From a virus, in IMG/VR virus record IMGVR_UViG_3300029893_000031, positions 14,892 through 39,107 of that record: DNA of 24,216 bases; one strand, 5' to 3'. The position numbers and the translations under genes were made by a program. Of the stretch, positions 4,953-24,216 are shown in pieces (the stretch's first letter is position 1; every line of letters begins with the position of its first letter). Below the pieces are notes generated by a model that did no database searches, was not told the origin of the DNA, and saw only the letters and a program-made list of their open reading frames with translations.

Positions 4953-5420
4953 TTACACCCTCTCCATACAGTAATAACCCATCAAGATAGCATCTGCCTC
5001 GTCATGGGTAATAGATTTACCGGCGAGGCGTGATGCTATATTTGTGTCCAATGCCTTCGGTCTCCCTGCCTTCCACGCTGTGGCCTCTACTTCCTCGGTT
5101 ACAATACCCCAGTCTGACAACACCAAAAGCAACGCTCCAACAGCCATGCTCAGCTTGTGAAGGGCAGCTTGGTTGAGAGACTTGCCAGAATATTTGGAAG
5201 TCTTTGAAAAGTAAGAAAAACCCTTCCCTACTGTTTCAACATAAGCCCTGTCAATGCTCTTTCCTGTCAGCACTTTCACAAGCTCTTGTTTTAGAGTTAA
5301 TAGCTTCTCGGAAGTGCTATTGCCTTTGGTTTTCAACACTCCCGATTCGAGCAGTTTCCTGCCTTGCCATATTGCATAGCCTGTTTTGTTGATGCTGCTA
5401 TCGAGAGCTATTATTGTCAT
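4953..5420 (-). CDS. RuvC-fold nuclease (Holliday-junction resolvase type)
   Basis: The 155-residue protein has the RuvC/RNase H nuclease signature: D7 in IIALDSS on the first strand, E62 in RAYVET, and D140/D143 in the terminal HDEADAILMGYY. This is the usual length of stand-alone phage RuvC-like resolvases, which cut four-way junctions during recombination or before packaging. Its ATG overlaps the stop of the Tas-like gene (ATGA), so the two are translationally coupled. That makes it either the phage resolvase or the separate nuclease partner of the TIGR-Tas-like locus upstream. In TasR proteins a RuvC domain is fused to the Nop-like domain; here the two are separate genes. Confidence 0.88.
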   Translation of the reverse strand: MTIIALDSSINKTGYAIWQGRKLLESGVLKTKGNSTSEKLLTLKQELVKVLTGKSIDRAYVETVGKGFSYFSKTSKYSGKSLNQAALHKLSMAVGALLLVLSDWGIVTEEVEATAWKAGRPKALDTNIASRLAGKSITHDEADAILMGYYCMERV

Positions 5421-6154
5421 TCGTCTATCGTTTTAACTGTTTGTTTCGCTTCTTTCAGTTGTTCTTTTAGCTCTGCCCATGATAAATACCCACCATGTCC
5501 AAGTTTTTCAATAACATAAGGGGGTCTCGTATCGAACCCTTCCACCTTGCGCCATGCCTCCCATAAATGTGAAAGAAACACCTTAACCATTCTGCGCATG
5601 GCACGATTGTGAATATGTCCTTTTTTGAGTTCTGGATTTAGCCTTGCCTGCTTTTCCTTTTCTTTGTAATAAATATCCTTATAAACATCATCACCCTGCT
5701 TGATGAATTGCTGTGCTATTTTCCACGCAAGAGTTTTGCCCTTCGTGTTAAAAAGAAAATGATACCCTTCCTTCCGCTTGGGCGATTTACCATGCACACG
5801 TTCAATTATTGTGAGCTTGCCACCGCAAACTTCTTTTTGCTGACCATTATTATTATTATTATTATCATTCTGCTTAATCGGTTTCAGGATAGGACAGGAT
5901 ACCCTTTTGTCAGATGCCATGATAATTTTATGACCATGCTCACAATGTGCAATAACATATTCTGCTGTCAGACCAAAGTAAGCCCATAAGCTCGACACTG
6001 TCGGAAATTTCCCAATATCCTGAATTTCTGCAATAAGGGTAGATGCAATAACCTTTCCTATCCCATTGATATGTTTGAAAAATTCATCCCATAAGTTAGT
6101 ATAGTCAACTAACTCCTCACACACCCCTTTTGCTCTTTTCTCTACAAGCTGCAT
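5417..6154 (-). CDS. Tas-like protein (IS110 Transposase_20 / Nop-like domain)
   Basis: The open part of the frame gives 245 residues. Residues 29-61 (HINGIGKVIASTLIAEIQDI, GKFPTVSSLWAYFGL) are the helix-hairpin-helix core of the IS110/IS116 C-terminal Transposase_20 domain. A likely zinc-binding insert follows (HCEHGH...SCP...VCGGK). The final part (GKTLAWKIAQQF, HIHNRAMRRMVKVFLSHLW) is typical of phage homologues. The N-terminal DEDD catalytic domain of a true IS110 transposase is absent, and there are no IS ends. With the 9+9-nt repeat-spacer array just upstream, the best reading is a Tas protein of a TIGR-Tas system, which binds 36-nt tigRNAs. An (ATT)n tract encodes seven Asn in nine residues. 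The frame really extends to ATG at 6301 but is broken by TAA (next entry). Confidence 0.8.
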   Translation of the reverse strand: MQLVEKRAKGVCEELVDYTNLWDEFFKHINGIGKVIASTLIAEIQDIGKFPTVSSLWAYFGLTAEYVIAHCEHGHKIIMASDKRVSCPILKPIKQNDNNNNNNGQQKEVCGGKLTIIERVHGKSPKRKEGYHFLFNTKGKTLAWKIAQQFIKQGDDVYKDIYYKEKEKQARLNPELKKGHIHNRAMRRMVKVFLSHLWEAWRKVEGFDTRPPYVIEKLGHGGYLSWAELKEQLKEAKQTVKTIDE

Positions 6155-6301
6155 TGCATCATAAAGTGATTTTGTTCTTTCGCTTAATAGTCCAGCTTTT
6201 TCTTTTGCTGCTACGATGTTGCCGAGTGCTATTCTCTGTTCTTGAATAGCATATAAAAGCCTGTTCGCAAATTTAATATCCTCTGCTTAAATCTTGTCCA
6301 T
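6155..6301 (-). pseudogene. 5' part of the Tas-like gene with in-frame TAA
   Basis: AAAGGAGGT stands 5-6 nt before ATG at 6301. The frame reads MDKI, then TAA (6289-6287), then 44 sense codons (AEDIKFANRLLYAIQEQRI..., GNIVAAKEKAGLLSERTK...) joining in frame to the open part starting at 6154. The segment after the stop keeps a coherent amphipathic helix and contains no other ATG, GTG or TTG. Without the stop the protein would be 294 residues. A point nonsense mutation is the simplest explanation; readthrough, re-initiation at 6154 or a sequencing error are alternatives. Confidence 0.7.
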
Positions 6302-6315
6302 TTTTTACCTCCTTT

Positions 6316-6505
6316 AAAATCGCATATTGCCATTGGTTCTCAAAAAAACTGTGGCTCGCAAAACTGTTCTGGTTCTCAAGCATACCGTGGCTCGCATTTC
6401 CGTTGTGGTTCTCAAAAACATCCTGGCTCGCAATTGCCTTTCTGGTTCTCAGCTCATTTATGGCTCGCACAGCTTTGTTGGTTCTCAAAACACTCCTGGC
6501 TCATA
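6316..6505 (-). repeat. TIGR-type array: alternating 9-nt repeats and 9-nt spacers
   Basis: In minus-strand sense TGAGAACCA (five perfect copies; plus-strand positions 6334, 6370, 6406, 6443, 6479) alternates with TGCGAGCCA (four perfect copies; 6352, 6388, 6424, 6461). Each is separated by 9 nt of unrelated sequence, with one spacer of 10 nt (6433-6442). Degenerate copies close both ends: TATGAGCCA at 6497-6505 and TGCGATTTT at 6316-6324. That makes 11 repeats and 10 spacers, or a 36-nt unit with two spacers. This matches the dual-spacer tigRNA design of TIGR-Tas systems and is unlike CRISPR (repeats far too short). The array starts 4 nt after the previous stop codon and ends at the ribosome-binding site of the Tas-like gene. 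A 71-codon frame crosses it only because 18 nt is a multiple of three. Confidence 0.88.
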
Positions 6506-6508
6506 AAC

Positions 6509-6727
6509 TTACTGCCCTATCTGCAATGGCATAGAACCATTCAGCTTTTTTACATAGCGATTGTATTCAATTTCCATTTTCGTAATTGATACAATCTTCC
6601 CAACACTGTTCAGAACACTATTTGCAACTGAAGGCGTAATTTCTTTATTAAGTATCTTCTCAATAGTGTCTATGCAACACTACCTTAAGTCATCAGTATT
6701 GTTGATTTTAACTGTATCCTTCGCCAT
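6509..6727 (-). pseudogene. Small conserved-looking gene with in-frame TAG, before the TIGR array
   Basis: GAGGAGGTGAG precedes ATG at 6727. The frame reads MAKDTVKINNTDDLR, then TAG (6682-6680), then 56 sense codons (CCIDTIEKILNKEITPSVAN... to ...LNGSMPLQIGQ) to a TAA at 6509. The helical, regularly spaced sequence after the stop (EKILNKEITPSVANSVLNSV, GKIVSITKMEIEYNRYVKKL) looks like an intact protein rather than noise, so the TAG is probably a recent nonsense change. Its stop lies 4 nt from the first array repeat. Family not recognised. Confidence 0.6.
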
Positions 6728-8993: not shown

Positions 8994-9704
8994 TTATAAG
9001 TATCCTCTCAGCGATTCCTTGATGTAATACCTTTTGCCGTATTTCTCTAATAGCGCTACTGCCTTTTTCGTGAAATCCTTCCAATCTATCTCTTTAGCCC
9101 TTTCGTCATAGTTCCACTTGCCGACTTTGTATTCGTCAACACATTCACGTGTCATACGGATAAGCTCAAGAGACTGTTTGGGATCAATGACTGGCTCAAG
9201 AGATACCCATGTATTGATTCCTTTCTGATGTGCAAAATAGAGGGCATTCATTCTTACTCCTGGGTAAGCAGCGTAAGGTTCATATTTTCTTGACATCGAA
9301 TCGTCTATAAAGGTCAGCGTAGCCCCATATTTATCGCCTTGATGCAATAGGTCAAAATCTCCCATACTGCCGTAACCGGCTTTTGCGAGAAGGCAAACAT
9401 TGATATTGTTTCGATGTAGCACAATAATCGCTTCTCTTGTAAGCCTGTATCCGAGATTAATATCTTGATATGGATCGCACGTGAAACATAGAAAGACTTC
9501 TCTGCCTGCATAATTGGGCGCTGATTTTTTTAATTCTTCAATAATGCTCGGTCTCGGCTGTGGGTTAGAAAAATCCTCACGGCTCATATGCAGCATTTGA
9601 GGCGCATAGCAATAGGTGCATCTATGCGAACAGCCTCGATATAGATTAAGAGCTAATTCGCCGTATTCTCTGGCGCGGCCTTTAGGCTGATAGATTGTTT
9701 GCAT
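8994..9704 (-). CDS. Radical SAM protein, SPL/COG1533-like
   Basis: This 236-residue radical S-adenosylmethionine enzyme has the CxxxCxxC cluster motif CSHRCTYCY (C25, C29, C32) bound to a 4Fe-4S centre. The opening LALNLYRGCSHRCTYCYAP and the later TCDPYQ and WVSLEPVIDP motifs place it in the spore-photoproduct-lyase-like COG1533 group. The substrate is unknown. It lies 24 nt after the DpdA-like gene, in one operon with it and the cytosine methyltransferase, so a DNA base-modifying or repairing reaction is plausible. GGAG upstream of ATG supports the start. Confidence 0.85.
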   Translation of the reverse strand: MQTIYQPKGRAREYGELALNLYRGCSHRCTYCYAPQMLHMSREDFSNPQPRPSIIEELKKSAPNYAGREVFLCFTCDPYQDINLGYRLTREAIIVLHRNNINVCLLAKAGYGSMGDFDLLHQGDKYGATLTFIDDSMSRKYEPYAAYPGVRMNALYFAHQKGINTWVSLEPVIDPKQSLELIRMTRECVDEYKVGKWNYDERAKEIDWKDFTKKAVALLEKYGKRYYIKESLRGYL

Positions 9705-9728
9705 AAAATTAAAACTCCATTAATTTTA

Positions 9729-10595
9729 TTAGCTTAATACCTCTTCAAAGAGGTTTTCCATTTTCGGTAATATACCGGTCAGTATTTGATGTTCAAGACT
9801 TGACATATTAAAGGCTGCAAGAGATGCGAACATGTATTTGTTTTTGGACGGAATGCTTAGTCTTACTCTTCTGCCTTCAACATCAATTACCTGAAACATT
9901 GCCGCTGCGAAGGAAGCAGTTGCACTGTCGCAACTATTGATTCCGATATTATTAAGTTCTAAGACCCATACTGGATTGGCAATTCCAAAGGTATGAATAT
10001 GATATTGCTCCGGTACCTGCTCCATAACGAATTTGGTAATGCTATATAGACCTGTTTTAGGTGTCCTCATGCACACGCTGCCAATTCCGAACCATGTCTT
10101 TGCTGGGTCGAGTTCAAAGAAGCCATGCTGCCTGAAGTAATCTATGCTCCTTTCGTAATCTTCTTGCTCATATCCCTGTATGACGAAACACTTAATAGCG
10201 TCCATTTTTTGTTCTTTTAGAAATTCGGCATTTTGCCATGTAATCTCCAATGCCTTTTCTTTTGAGATTTCAGCCATTCTGAGAATGCCGATTTCCATGG
10301 GAATATCAGCATGTGCGATAATGTCAGGGGATATCTGCTGTTGTATTTCCAAAACCCTTTCGGGATGAAGGGAATATTCTTTGATTGCCTCAGGACCTGA
10401 CTTTTTAATCCAGCCTAATAGGCCGCTGTCAGCAAATAAGAGTTTCTTTTTCTCCTGTATCATGCCGATATGCTTTTTCCATCGGCCTTCAAATGTGAGC
10501 ATTGAGGCGGCAATAAGAAGATGTAACGATTTATCGTCAAAAAATCTTAATGCTCTGAATTCAGCACCGCCCATGAGAGTATGAAAGAGTTTCAT
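9729..10595 (-). CDS. dpdA: DpdA-like TGT-fold transglycosylase
   Basis: The 288-residue protein has the TIM-barrel pattern of phage DpdA and tRNA-guanine transglycosylases: LLFADSGLLGW (D56), DIIAHADIP (D97), CFVIQG (139-141), WFGIGSVC (169-175), HTFGIANP (201-208) and the NSCDSATAS segment (D223). DpdA enzymes exchange guanine in DNA for a 7-deazaguanine made from preQ0. No preQ0-synthesis genes (queC, queD, queE, folE) lie in this window, so the base would have to come from the host, or the protein has another substrate. Its ATG overlaps the methyltransferase stop (ATGA), giving tight coupling in the modification operon. Confidence 0.78.
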   Translation of the reverse strand: MKLFHTLMGGAEFRALRFFDDKSLHLLIAASMLTFEGRWKKHIGMIQEKKKLLFADSGLLGWIKKSGPEAIKEYSLHPERVLEIQQQISPDIIAHADIPMEIGILRMAEISKEKALEITWQNAEFLKEQKMDAIKCFVIQGYEQEDYERSIDYFRQHGFFELDPAKTWFGIGSVCMRTPKTGLYSITKFVMEQVPEQYHIHTFGIANPVWVLELNNIGINSCDSATASFAAAMFQVIDVEGRRVRLSIPSKNKYMFASLAAFNMSSLEHQILTGILPKMENLFEEVLS

Positions 10596-12352
10596 GATGC
10601 CACCTTTTCTCTACCAGCAGACGTGGTTGATATGTCAAAAATATCCACAGCATTTGCCCTGACCATAGCCTCTGCGAGATTAGGGGGGACAGAGTTGCCA
10701 CATTTAGCAACTTGCTCGGTTTTGGTGATAGGTTTACTGTCTATATCTCGGTCAATAATGTAGTTGTCTGGAAAGCCTTGAGCTCGGAAAAGCTCTCGAG
10801 GCGTTAACATCCTCATACCGATATCAACAATCTGGTATTCTTCGCCATGGACAGTGACAAGGCCAAATCTATCTTTTGTAGTCACAGTATGCAGCGGGTC
10901 GCGCAATCCAATGCCTTGTTTTTCGTTGCCGTAATACTTCATCAGAAAAGCTCTTACCTCTCCATGGTGTGTTCCCCCTGCAGTAATCGTATGTAATGGC
11001 TCTCTCACATCATGCCCAATATTAGTCCCTTTCAATTTAACTATGTGAGAAGTGATAAGGCTGTATTTATCCTTGCTCGTAATAGTCCTTGCAGGCGATT
11101 GAAGAGACGATCCTGTTCCTTGTCCGAAATGACTTGCCAGATGAGCCACTACCAGCGAATGATGATCAATGCTCGTTACTGTTCCTATAGGGTCTTTTAA
11201 ATCCGATCCGACAACGCCATTACCATAATGCTTTGCAAGGAAGGCGGAAACGAGAGATGTTTTCCCTAAACCTCCTGGCATAATAGTTCCAAGGGGTTCT
11301 GAAGTATTTGAACCAATGCTCTCGCCGAAATTACGAACAAGATAGGGCGCTACCAGAGCATATTCTCCACGGTGCGCTGCAGTGACTGTTGGAAATGGAT
11401 TTTTTAGACTGTTTGTTCTATCACTTCCCTGATGTGTAAGTGGCATTATATGGGGCGTTACCAAAGCATGTCTGTTTTCGGTTGTCTGCGTTCGTATAGG
11501 TTCGTTGATAGGCTGTCCACGAAAGTCTTCCGGGCCTTTTGCGCCGTAATAGGTAACAATGAACGGATCGGCGGCATTAATTACATACTTCATAATTCCC
11601 TTCGCAATTCTCCGCTGCGTTGCCTCGGCTAAAGGCTTTTTTCTTTCAAATATGGAAGGACAGGGGATGCTCCAATCAATACATTCCGCAGCGGTTCTCC
11701 ACGGCTTAAGACGACCGCTTTTGACCGCATCGCTTTTTGGATCGCCGTGGGTCGGTTCCGGCCAGATAATAGGCTGCCCGTCGCAGCGGGCAATGAGAAA
11801 CAGCCTCTTCCGGATTGTTGGCGCGCCGTAGTCACAGGCTCTTAGTTCACGATATTCTATGGCATAACCATGCCGCTTAAGCGCATTTATAAATGCGTTG
11901 AATGTCTGCCCCTTGCGTTTAGGGCATGGATAATGATTACCATCCTCTTTCTTTATGAGAGGTCCCCATGTAACGAATTCCTCGACGTTTTCAAGCATTA
12001 TGATTCTCGGACGGACAGTAGCAGCCCATTTAAGAACAACCCATGCAAGACCTCTGATTTGCTTTTTAACTGGCTTGCCACCCTTGGCTTTGCTGAAATG
12101 CGTACAGTCGGGGGAGAACCATGCAAGTCCGACCTGACGGCCTTTGCAGGCCTTAACAGGGTCTATATCCCATACGGATTCGCAATAGTGCTTTGTATGA
12201 GGGTGATTGATACGGTGCATGGCGATAGCTACGGGATCGTGGTTGATTGCAATATCCACATGGCGACCTAAAGCCTTCTCAATGCCGGTGGAGGCTCCGC
12301 CGCCTCCGGCAAAGTTGTCTACTATTAATGGAATTGATGTTGATTGAATCAT
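10592..12352 (-). CDS. DNA (cytosine-5) methyltransferase
   Basis: This 586-residue C5-cytosine methyltransferase has motif I FAGGGGAS (14-21, AdoMet binding), a variant motif IV WFSPDCTHFS with catalytic C83 (PDC instead of the usual PCQ), the ENV motif (MLENVEEF, 119-126), and C-terminal MLTPRELFRAQGFPDNY plus GNSVPPNLAEAM (motifs IX-X). The target-recognition part (about 270-500) is built from about six related 35-45-residue units of the form EPLxTxTxxxxxxLVxxxLxxxxG. AGGAAGG lies upstream of ATG. The block it shares with the DpdA-like and radical SAM genes is visibly GC-richer than its neighbours, suggesting joint acquisition. Likely role: protection from host restriction. Confidence 0.92.
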   Translation of the reverse strand: MIQSTSIPLIVDNFAGGGGASTGIEKALGRHVDIAINHDPVAIAMHRINHPHTKHYCESVWDIDPVKACKGRQVGLAWFSPDCTHFSKAKGGKPVKKQIRGLAWVVLKWAATVRPRIIMLENVEEFVTWGPLIKKEDGNHYPCPKRKGQTFNAFINALKRHGYAIEYRELRACDYGAPTIRKRLFLIARCDGQPIIWPEPTHGDPKSDAVKSGRLKPWRTAAECIDWSIPCPSIFERKKPLAEATQRRIAKGIMKYVINAADPFIVTYYGAKGPEDFRGQPINEPIRTQTTENRHALVTPHIMPLTHQGSDRTNSLKNPFPTVTAAHRGEYALVAPYLVRNFGESIGSNTSEPLGTIMPGGLGKTSLVSAFLAKHYGNGVVGSDLKDPIGTVTSIDHHSLVVAHLASHFGQGTGSSLQSPARTITSKDKYSLITSHIVKLKGTNIGHDVREPLHTITAGGTHHGEVRAFLMKYYGNEKQGIGLRDPLHTVTTKDRFGLVTVHGEEYQIVDIGMRMLTPRELFRAQGFPDNYIIDRDIDSKPITKTEQVAKCGNSVPPNLAEAMVRANAVDIFDISTTSAGREKVAS

Positions 12353-14671: not shown

Positions 14672-14895
14672 TGTTACTGATAAGAACACATAAGGGTTTT
14701 AAAGTATCAAGGTCAGGGTTAGGGTCAGGGTCAGGGTTAGTATCAGGGTCAGGGTCATGGTTATGGTCAGGGTCAGGGTCAAGTTCATGGTTATGGTCAG
14801 AGTCAGGGTCAGGGTCATGGTTATGGTCAGGGTCAGGGTCAAGTTCATGGTTAGTGTCAAGGTCAGGGTTAGGGTCAGGGACACTGACCATATAA
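14671..14895 (+). CDS. Possible Ser/Gly-rich repeat protein over the hexamer array
   Basis: An ATG overlapping the previous stop opens a 74-codon frame: MLLIRTHKGFKV followed by Ser-Gly/Ser-Trp-Leu repeats to the end of the hexamer array. The 6-nt period keeps all six frames almost free of stops, so openness is no evidence of coding. The translational overlap and in-frame N-terminus are the only support. It is equally possible that only the DNA or RNA repeat matters. Confidence 0.3.
   Translation: MLLIRTHKGFKVSRSGLGSGSGLVSGSGSWLWSGSGSSSWLWSESGSGSWLWSGSGSSSWLVSRSGLGSGTLTI
14707..14880. repeat. Telomere-like hexanucleotide array, G-quadruplex-prone
   Basis: This array has 29 tandem 6-bp units, mostly TCAGGG with TTAGGG, TCATGG, TTATGG and TCAAGT variants. 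Higher-order order is visible: a TCATGG-TTATGG pair recurs three times. Four GGG runs separated by exactly 3 nt (14716-14736) form a textbook intramolecular G-quadruplex motif on the plus strand. The array is directly downstream of the Sm-like gene. Confidence 0.9.
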
Positions 14896-22510: not shown

Positions 22511-23026
22511 TTACTGCGGAGTTCTTTTTCTTAAAGTCCTACCAAACCCACCGCTCGCACACCGCCAGCCCAAATACCACTCTATCTTAGAGCCTTTATA
22601 ACTAATGAAAGGAACAAACAATACAGTAACAAATCTCCACCACGACAGATAAGCAAGTATTTTCACAAGATAAAAATACCAACCACTTAATAAAGATGAC
22701 CCAAGGAAAAAGACATTGGCAAGCACAAGAAACATGAGCAAAGGTCTATAATCCAAATGCAATCCAATTCCGAAATTCCATTTGGCTGGCTGTGTTGCCC
22801 ATACCTGCCCTTCAAATCTACAATATCTTCTTACCTGCTTTCCTTCTAAACCTATAAAACTGTGCGTGTAATTGTGTAAAGGGTTTCTGATAAAGAACCA
22901 ATAAAATTCCCTCCACCATTGAGGATGGCATGGCTTAAACCAATCAGGCGGTAAAGGGTCTCTATCATTTCCAAAAATATTCCACATAAAGTCATTGCAT
23001 TGTAACATTTTCTTTATAAAAGCCAT
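22511..23026 (-). CDS. Phage membrane protein, DUF7338-like
   Basis: The 171-residue product has the characteristic opening DPLPPDWFKPCHPQWWREFY and FFIRNPLHNYTHSFIG, followed by membrane segments near residues 93-112 and 117-138. I recall this motif set as an uncharacterised family in lysis or tail-adjacent phage genes (DUF7338-like). GGAGGG precedes ATG. Its role is unknown; placement suggests late expression. Confidence 0.7.
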   Translation of the reverse strand: MAFIKKMLQCNDFMWNIFGNDRDPLPPDWFKPCHPQWWREFYWFFIRNPLHNYTHSFIGLEGKQVRRYCRFEGQVWATQPAKWNFGIGLHLDYRPLLMFLVLANVFFLGSSLLSGWYFYLVKILAYLSWWRFVTVLFVPFISYKGSKIEWYLGWRCASGGFGRTLRKRTPQ

Positions 23027-23041
23027 TTTCGTTTTACCCTC

Positions 23042-23374
23042 CTAAATTACTTTCGAAGATGGCGGTATAATCTTCCCTGCAACAGTATCAATAGACCATA
23101 TCGTATTTGTCAATTTTTCCGCTAATGCTTTCGCAGAGTCTAATGTCTTCAAATGAGCGCCCCACATTTGCAGTCCTTCCAGAATTACGTCCCGATGTTC
23201 TAAAGTATCCGTCTCAATCTCATACAACCACCTTCCGTCATCATTAGCCCCACCGCACAAACATTTCCAATTCAAAGGCAATCCTTTAAAACCATTATTC
23301 AGGTGATGTTTGGGACTTAACAACCTCGTTCCTTCCGTTAATATCGGACGGATTGAAACATAAAAAGTTATCAT
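23042..23374 (-). CDS. Small late protein of unknown function
   Basis: The 110-residue protein starts at ATG 23374 with AAGGAGGAG 4 nt upstream, inside the previous gene (80-nt overlap in another frame). The central WKCLCGGANDDGRWLYEIET and the helical C-terminus (KTLDSAKALAEKLTNTIWSI) show no known family. Because the overlap is long, one of the two frames may be restricted at its end. The excellent ribosome-binding site argues that this start is real. Confidence 0.6.
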   Translation of the reverse strand: MITFYVSIRPILTEGTRLLSPKHHLNNGFKGLPLNWKCLCGGANDDGRWLYEIETDTLEHRDVILEGLQMWGAHLKTLDSAKALAEKLTNTIWSIDTVAGKIIPPSSKVI

Positions 23375-23918
23375 CGTGCTCCTCCTTTATGTATGCAATT
23401 TCACCTTTTTCGTTTTTTCCTACTTTGATGCCAATCTGCTCAAGCGATTGCATCGTATCTTTAGTTACATATCCCAAAGATAAAACCTCTCTTTTCATAT
23501 CTGCGAGCAACTTCTTTTCCCAATAAACACCCTCTGCATTTTCAAACTGTTCTCTTGTGAAGTCAGGCAACTGATTGAGGATATTCTCGTAGGCTTTAAT
23601 CTCAATATAACAATCCTCAATCAATTTAACCTCTTCATCAAGAAGGAACTGTTTTTCCTCCATATCTATTTCAAGCCTTTTTGCTTCAAAACCTTCTGCC
23701 GTCTTCAGCTTTTCCCTAATTTCTTCCATATCGATTTCAATCCTTCGCCTTCTAAATTCACATTCTTTCATAGCCCTTATTTTCTGATTGAGTTGTAACA
23801 AGCAGTTGCGGTATGTTCGCTCTGGTGTTTCAAGCCCACGACTGAATTTCTCGATTTGAAATACGGAATTTCCAAAAGGAACATTTCGCATTTTTTCTTT
23901 GAGTTTACAAATATCCAT
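23295..23918 (-). CDS. Coiled-coil late protein
   Basis: The start is set at ATG 23918 (GGAG 7 nt upstream), overlapping the adhesin gene's end; a TTG at 23939 is possible. The 207-residue product is highly charged, with long heptad-like helices (RRRRIEIDMEEIREKLKTAE, AKRLEIDMEEKQFLLDEEVK), suggesting an oligomeric rod. The near repeat RxxxIDMEE occurs twice. Position after the kelch-type tail gene suggests a tail-fibre assembly or chaperone role; this is inferred. Confidence 0.65.
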   Translation of the reverse strand: MDICKLKEKMRNVPFGNSVFQIEKFSRGLETPERTYRNCLLQLNQKIRAMKECEFRRRRIEIDMEEIREKLKTAEGFEAKRLEIDMEEKQFLLDEEVKLIEDCYIEIKAYENILNQLPDFTREQFENAEGVYWEKKLLADMKREVLSLGYVTKDTMQSLEQIGIKVGKNEKGEIAYIKEEHDDNFLCFNPSDINGRNEVVKSQTSPE

Positions 23919-24216
23919 ACTGAACTCCTGCACCATCAAATTTTGCCGTATCCAAAGTTGCAGCTATAGCTTGTGATGTTTCATTTGAAAATATCAAGTC
24001 TTCAATAACTGCTGTTGCTGCCCCTGTGTATCCACCCATTATGTAGCCCTTCGTTGAACTATTCACACCTGCTACATAATACCTTGCCGTATCCAAAGTT
24101 GCAGTGATAGCTTGTGATGTTTCATTTGAAAATATCAAGTCTTCAATAACTGCTGTTGCTGCCCCTGTGTATCCACCCATTATGTAGCCCTTCGTTGAAC
24201 TATTCACACCTGCACT
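23905..24216 (-). CDS. Kelch-repeat tail/adhesion protein (3' end; N-terminus beyond the window)
   Basis: The frame is open to the right edge, so this is the C-terminal end of a larger gene. It has two almost identical 47-residue units (GYIMGGYTGAATAVIEDLIF, SNETSQAI, ATLDTA, AGVNSSTK) of the kelch/beta-propeller kind seen in phage tail or receptor-binding proteins. The DNA repeats (about 130 bp, 141-bp period, starting near 23943 and 24084) differ at only a few bases. Confidence 0.75.
   Translation of the reverse strand, partial: SAGVNSSTKGYIMGGYTGAATAVIEDLIFSNETSQAITATLDTARYYVAGVNSSTKGYIMGGYTGAATAVIEDLIFSNETSQAIAATLDTAKFDGAGVQYGYL
23943..24216. repeat. 141-bp tandem repeats in the kelch-type gene
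   Basis: Two copies about 97-98% identical by eye, with the second running to the window edge. The near identity implies recent duplication or ongoing recombination. Repeat number is probably variable and may be miscounted in short-read assemblies. Confidence 0.85.

What the first reader, a model, noticed from the sequence alone, without database searches (positions are those of the whole stretch)
6316..6505. A TIGR-type dual-spacer guide array in a phage genome
Seen: TGAGAACCA and TGCGAGCCA alternate 11 times, with 9-nt unrelated spacers (one 10-nt), giving a 36-nt unit with two spacers. The array is flush against the ribosome-binding site of a Tas/IS110-C-domain-like gene. Known: TIGR-Tas systems use 36-nt tigRNAs with two 9-nt spacers, bound by Nop-domain Tas proteins related to IS110 and box C/D RNPs. 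Inferred: this is such a locus, giving ten potential 9-nt guide segments. The repeats differ at only two positions (A/C at 3, A/G at 6), as expected for distinct edge and loop repeats.
Basis: partly seen in the sequence, partly recalled or inferred. Interest (0 to 1): 0.96.

Follow-up and report, generated by a model that had tools for sequence, protein, structure and literature searches.

The report
TIGR guide array with interrupted TasA
This unclassified virus carries a five-unit TIGR-Tas RNA-guide array, a kind of programmable DNA-binding system first described in 2025, but the partner protein gene has an early stop codon in this assembly, so this copy may be switched off.

Summary
There are ten spacers, nine of 9 nt and one of 10 nt. 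Both repeats start UG and end CCA, the published boxes D and C. The next gene encodes a nuclease-less Nop protein (TasA): it matches solved TasR by sequence (E 6.6e-28) and its model by fold (Z 21.5, 1.8 Å over 199 residues). Six other viral contigs carry the identical repeat pair with other spacers, and at least 33 other virus records carry a Tas gene with an open frame, most beside a dual-repeat array.
New here: tas has an in-frame TAA at codon 5, next to a perfect Shine-Dalgarno and ATG, the clearest nonsense candidate in the 39-kb record; the small gene before the array also has an in-frame TAG. Either TasA was lost very recently (the repeats are still perfect) or the assembly is wrong there. 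No target was found above chance. A new member of a known kind, possibly decayed.

The parts
6497..6502 (-). 5'-truncated edge repeat GAGCCA (array start)
   Evidence: [quoted passage not shown]
6461..6496 (-). unit 1: spacer A1 GGAGTGTTT, loop repeat 6487-6479, spacer B1 ACAAAGCTG, edge repeat 6469-6461
6424..6460 (-). unit 2: spacer A2 TAAATGAGC, loop 6451-6443, spacer B2 GAAAGGCAAT (10 nt), edge 6432-6424
6388..6423 (-). unit 3: spacer A3 GGATGTTTT, loop 6414-6406, spacer B3 CAACGGAAA, edge 6396-6388
6352..6387 (-). unit 4: spacer A4 CGGTATGCT, loop 6378-6370, spacer B4 GAACAGTTT, edge 6360-6352
6320..6351 (-). unit 5: spacer A5 CAGTTTTTT, loop 6342-6334, spacer B5 ATGGCAATA, 3'-truncated edge TGCGA 6324-6320 (array end)
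6307..6315 (-). Shine-Dalgarno AAAGGAGGT of tas, 4 nt after the array
   Evidence: sequence
5417..6301 (-). tasA frame: 294-aa solo Nop protein (read through), with an in-frame TAA at codon 5 (6289-6287). The first later start codon is M49 (245-aa ORF at 6154)
6509..6727 (-). small upstream gene, 72 residues, with an in-frame TAG at codon 16; ends just before the array
   Evidence: weak PHROG match only
4953..5420 (-). RuvC-like Holliday-junction resolvase, 155 aa, overlapping the tas stop by 4 nt (ATGA)
   Evidence: link to Tas weak

Best explanation
This is a dual-repeat TIGR-TasA locus of an unclassified double-stranded DNA virus. The array sits in the leader of the tas mRNA. By homology, its transcript would be bound by a TasA dimer and cut by a host RNase in the middle of each edge repeat, giving five tigRNAs of about 36 nt. 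Each would guide TasA to a site of about 18 bp, spacer A pairing with one strand and spacer B with the other. TasA has no nuclease, so it would bind, bend or block DNA, not cut it. In the assembled sequence tas carries an ochre stop at codon 5, so this copy is probably not, or only poorly, expressed. The perfect repeats imply that the loss, if real, is very recent. Shown: array anatomy, homology, predicted fold, absence of a nuclease domain, and the stop codon in the assembly. Inferred: transcription, processing, targeting and loss of function. The confidence given is for membership of TIGR-TasA; that this copy is inactivated I put at about 0.6.
For: Array with truncated edges at both ends. 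Tas protein matches TasR 9mty at E 6.6e-28 and TasH 21kl at 4.8e-11, and PHROG 4285 at 4.7e-38. The model has pLDDT 87; the best PDB match is TasR in complex with tigRNA and DNA, Z 21.5, rmsd 1.8, 199 residues aligned to TasR 112-322, so the RuvC part is absent. The identical repeat pair occurs with different spacers in L008, L009, L014, L016, L017 and L019: 80 distinct spacers in seven loci, two shared, both between sister contigs. Dual-repeat arrays lie beside most tas relatives, with the same array-then-tas layout in L024, L037, L043 and L045. Stop codon. All three stops end genes elsewhere, and this TAA is the strongest nonsense candidate in the record.
Against: There is no RNA evidence. 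No terminator follows the array, unlike typical TIGR arrays. Free-RNA folding of the units is no better than shuffles, though published tigRNAs are not expected to fold alone. No target is found above chance. The premature stop argues against a working system in this assembly, but an assembly error cannot be ruled out without reads.
Confidence: 0.93

Rival explanations
1. The TIGR locus is intact and working: the TAA at codon 5 is a sequencing or assembly error, a minor-strain variant, or is bypassed (stop readthrough, or initiation at a non-standard codon such as AUU at codon 9).
For: All nine full repeats are perfect, the rest of tas is open and conserved, and codon 5 lies in a non-conserved stretch just before the first helix. 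No other tas examined is clearly interrupted within its coding frame.
Against: A second in-frame stop lies in the adjacent small gene. All three stop codons are used normally in the record and no tRNA gene, hence no suppressor, was found. There is no ATG, GTG or TTG between codon 5 and M49 (sequence; ORF start).
Confidence: 0.4
2. The repeat is a protein-coding repeat.
For: Units of 36 nt keep frame and some frames are open across the array.
Against: One unit is 37 nt, which shifts the frame. The same repeats occur elsewhere with unrelated spacers, some of 10 nt. The truncated repeat at each end follows RNA-unit logic.
Confidence: 0.02
3. An IS110-type transposase remnant with a bridge RNA beside it.
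For: The only Pfam hit is Transposase_20 (E 8.7e-7), and IS621 and ISCro4 match by fold at Z about 14.
Against: There is no DEDD domain, the match to TasR is much stronger (Z 21.5), and the dual-repeat array does not resemble a two-stem bridge RNA.
Confidence: 0.02
4. Split TasR: the solo Nop protein works with the separately encoded RuvC-like nuclease that overlaps it by 4 nt, giving RNA-guided cleavage.
For: RuvC-like gene translationally overlapping tas. RuvC-like genes lie within about 3 kb on the same strand in a few other Tas loci (G006, G007, G020).
Against: Most Tas records show no RuvC-like gene near tas. RuvC-like resolvases are ordinary phage genes.
Confidence: 0.04

Closest known systems
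TIGR-TasA (dual-repeat clade; e.g. Flavonifractor plautii FpTIGR, PMC12045711)
   Same: Solo Nop protein; alternating repeats with UG and CCA ends; 9-nt spacers; truncated edge repeats at both ends; found in viruses.
   Different: tas has a premature stop; no terminator after the array, which runs straight into the tas ribosome-binding site; a zinc-ribbon-like insertion (about residues 114-168) in the protein. Not compared residue by residue with FpTasA, whose sequence was not at hand.
TIGR-TasR (PDB 9mty)
   Same: Nop fold, Z 21.5; same repeat ends UG...CCA.
   Different: The N-terminal RuvC nuclease domain is absent here.
TIGR-TasH of Salicola phage CGphi29 (PDB 21kl, 9w04)
   Same: Nop fold, Z about 20; phage-borne; dual-repeat array.
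   Different: No HNH domain here; different repeat sequences.
IS110/IS621 bridge-RNA recombinases and box C/D Nop5
   Same: Shared Nop fold (Z about 14 and 7.5-9).
   Different: No DEDD domain, no bridge RNA, no fibrillarin partner.

Membership tests
TIGR-Tas, dual-repeat type | two alternating 8-12-nt repeats separated by about 9-nt variable spacers | tested here: met
   9-nt repeats, nine 9-nt spacers and one 10-nt spacer
TIGR-Tas, dual-repeat type | box D (UG) and box C (CCA) shared by edge and loop repeats; extra pair in the edge repeat | tested here: met
   TGCGAGCCA and TGAGAACCA against the rules
TIGR-Tas, dual-repeat type | 5'- and 3'-truncated edge repeats at the array ends | tested here: met
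   GAGCCA at 6502-6497 and TGCGA at 6324-6320
TIGR-Tas, dual-repeat type | rho-independent terminator after the array (described as typical, not as defining) | tested here: not met
   none between array and tas; arrays in L037 and L043 also run into tas
TIGR-Tas, dual-repeat type | adjacent gene for a Nop-domain Tas protein | tested here: met
   (on the frame read through codon 5)
TIGR-Tas, dual-repeat type | Tas gene intact and expressed | tested here: inconclusive
   TAA at codon 5 in the assembly; no reads available
TIGR-Tas, dual-repeat type | array processed to about 36-nt tigRNAs | not testable with these tools
   no RNA data
TIGR-Tas, dual-repeat type | tandem spacer pairing with the two strands of a DNA target | tested here: inconclusive
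   no target above chance
TasA subtype | no RuvC or HNH domain fused to the Nop domain | tested here: met
   model residues 7-281 align to TasR 112-322; 294 aa in all
IS110 transposase | DEDD catalytic domain plus bridge RNA | tested here: not met
   only Transposase_20 matches, at residues 74-112; N-terminus is a coiled coil

The most novel reading that the evidence does not exclude
In this and some related loci the array is the 5' leader of tas and ends at its ribosome-binding site, so Tas binding and the cut in the last edge repeat could control Tas's own translation. TasA might also recruit the overlapping RuvC-like nuclease as a split TasR. Neither is shown.
Probability: 0.08. Interest if true: 0.65.

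Novelty: new member of a known kind. Interest (0 to 1): 0.42.

Why it matters
TIGR-Tas systems were described only in 2025, and their natural role and targets are unknown. The locus adds a member from a virus with no close relative in the phage collection. It comes with a set of viral loci that share exactly the same repeat pair, which is useful for studying how spacers turn over. The interrupted tas next to perfect repeats, if real, would be a natural example of loss of the effector with its guides kept.

Tried and rejected
Stop-codon reassignment: rejected, because TAA, TAG and TGA all end long genes in the record, and tas stands out as interrupted. Self-targeting: best hits have 3 mismatches of 18, the same as shuffled sequence. 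Targets in viral contigs, in the A plus reverse-complement-B geometry that I deduced from the reported 8-nt 3' overhangs, for three of the five units: 3, 1 and 3 hits, about what chance gives at this database size (my rough estimate), in contigs with no close kinship. Free folding of the units: no signal. RuvC partnership: not recurrent enough. Rfam: no match. tRNA and suppressor search: none. Close phage relatives: none in the phage collection by megablast; terminase relatives up to 54% identical, in stretches with no tas match. The first protein-only scan for relatives failed because its exact peptides were too specific.

Full report
WHAT IS THERE. The window is part of a 39,107-base virus record (positions 14,892-39,107). 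On the minus strand between 6502 and 6320 lies a strictly regular array. It holds five copies of TGAGAACCA and four full copies of TGCGAGCCA in alternation, with ten unrelated spacers, nine of 9 nt and one of 10 nt. An exact 9-mer recurs five times at a period of 35-37 nt, against at most two in 60 shuffles.

MEMBERSHIP. The primary TIGR-Tas paper (PMC12045711) describes the arrays as alternating edge and loop repeats of 8-12 nt, 9-nt spacers, UG (box D) and CCA (box C) at the ends of both repeats, and 5'- and 3'-truncated edge repeats at the array ends. All of these are met. TGCGAGCCA is the edge repeat: its truncated forms bound the array, and it can form the extra C3-G6 pair. TGAGAACCA is the A-rich loop repeat. 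The expected unit, cut inside the edge repeat (GAGCCA-A-loop-B-TGC), is 36 nt, or 37 nt for unit 2. The terminator that typically follows an array is missing.

THE PROTEIN. The next gene (6301-5417, minus) has a Shine-Dalgarno AAAGGAGGT 4 nt after the array. Read through its codon 5, the product is 294 aa. It matches TasR (PDB 9mty, E 6.6e-28) and TasH (21kl, 4.8e-11), and PHROG 4285 (4.7e-38), which PHROGs calls 'transposase' but which here behaves as a Tas family: 35 of 36 records searched match it, most of them beside dual-repeat arrays. Most of those records were collected by Tas homology, so their matching is expected; their arrays were not part of that selection. The predicted structure (pLDDT 87) aligns to TasR bound to tigRNA and DNA at Z 21.5, 1.8 Å over 199 residues, and to IS621 at about 14. 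The alignment starts at TasR residue 112, so the RuvC domain is absent and this is a TasA. An insertion at about residues 114-168 carries Cys and His residues; at the same place L025 has CPEC...CPICG and L039 has CAAC, so a zinc-ribbon-like insertion recurs. Zinc binding is inference.

RELATIVES. The identical repeat pair occurs in real arrays in six other viral contigs (L008, L009, L014, L016, L017, L019); the other six pattern hits are single chance-like matches. Their spacers differ: 80 distinct spacers in seven loci, with two shared between the sister contigs L008 and L016. This rules out a conserved coding repeat, as does the 37-nt unit. A profile search brought 34 loci with Tas relatives. 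Arrays lie up- or downstream of tas. The layout seen here, with the array running up to the tas ribosome-binding site, recurs in L024, L037, L043 and L045.

THE INTERRUPTION. Codon 5 of tas is TAA (6289-6287): MDKI*AEDIKFANRLLYAIQ... There is no ATG, GTG or TTG before M49, and a start there would remove the first long helix (residues 6-35). All three stop codons end long genes in the record and no tRNA gene was found, so recoding is unlikely. In a codon-usage scan of the whole record this TAA is the best nonsense candidate. No other Tas record shows a clear interruption: the one other stop reported (G020, one TGA) lies before the start codon of an open 242-aa frame. The small gene just upstream of the array (6727-6509) also has an in-frame TAG, at codon 16. 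All repeats are still perfect. Either the loss is very recent or the assembly is wrong here; reads would settle it.

HOW IT WOULD WORK. By homology with the published systems, the transcript is bound by TasA and cut in the edge repeats by a host RNase, giving five tigRNAs. Each pairs spacer A with one DNA strand and spacer B with the other. TasA has no nuclease, so binding, bending or blocking DNA is expected, not cutting. All of this is inference here. No target was found: none in the own genome above shuffles, and chance-level hits in viral contigs.

OTHER IDEAS. A RuvC-like resolvase gene overlaps tas by 4 nt, which suggested a split TasR. RuvC-like genes are near tas in only a few records, so the link is weak.

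VERDICT. A new member of TIGR-TasA, correctly spotted from raw sequence, probably with an inactivated effector gene in this assembly.

Noticed in passing
L017 record (G002, 104,444 bases): 22553-22937, about 82,795-83,503, and 98,662: One large viral record with a single tas gene (23121-23927) carries TIGR-type repeats at three separate places, two of them some 60-75 kb from tas, suggesting one Tas serving several remote arrays.
   Followed up: partly
L014 7937-8183 (record G001, 19,326 bases): A regular TIGR array with the same repeat pair, some 10-nt spacers and a hairpin with T-rich tail after it, but no Tas homologue in the fragment.
   Followed up: partly
L008 6136-6685 and L016 3754-4087: Sister loci with near-identical Tas proteins share only two spacers: a handle on TIGR spacer turnover.
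   Followed up: no
window 8994-12352: Gene cluster of a radical-SAM protein, a TGT/DpdA-like protein and a probable C5 cytosine methyltransferase (the last from its sequence only), suggesting modified viral DNA (for the first two).
   Followed up: no
window 1 (record 14882-14891): A run of 10 N lies just before the window, so the record is scaffolded.
   Followed up: no
L025 and L039, at the position of window Tas residues 114-168: Zinc-ribbon-like insertions (CPEC...CPICG; CAAC) recur at one place in the Nop domain of several TasA proteins.
   Followed up: partly
L064 280-1746: The closest terminase relative in the genome collection (54%) lies in a contig filed under a Candidatus Kaiserbacteria metagenome bin; the host is unproven.
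   Followed up: no
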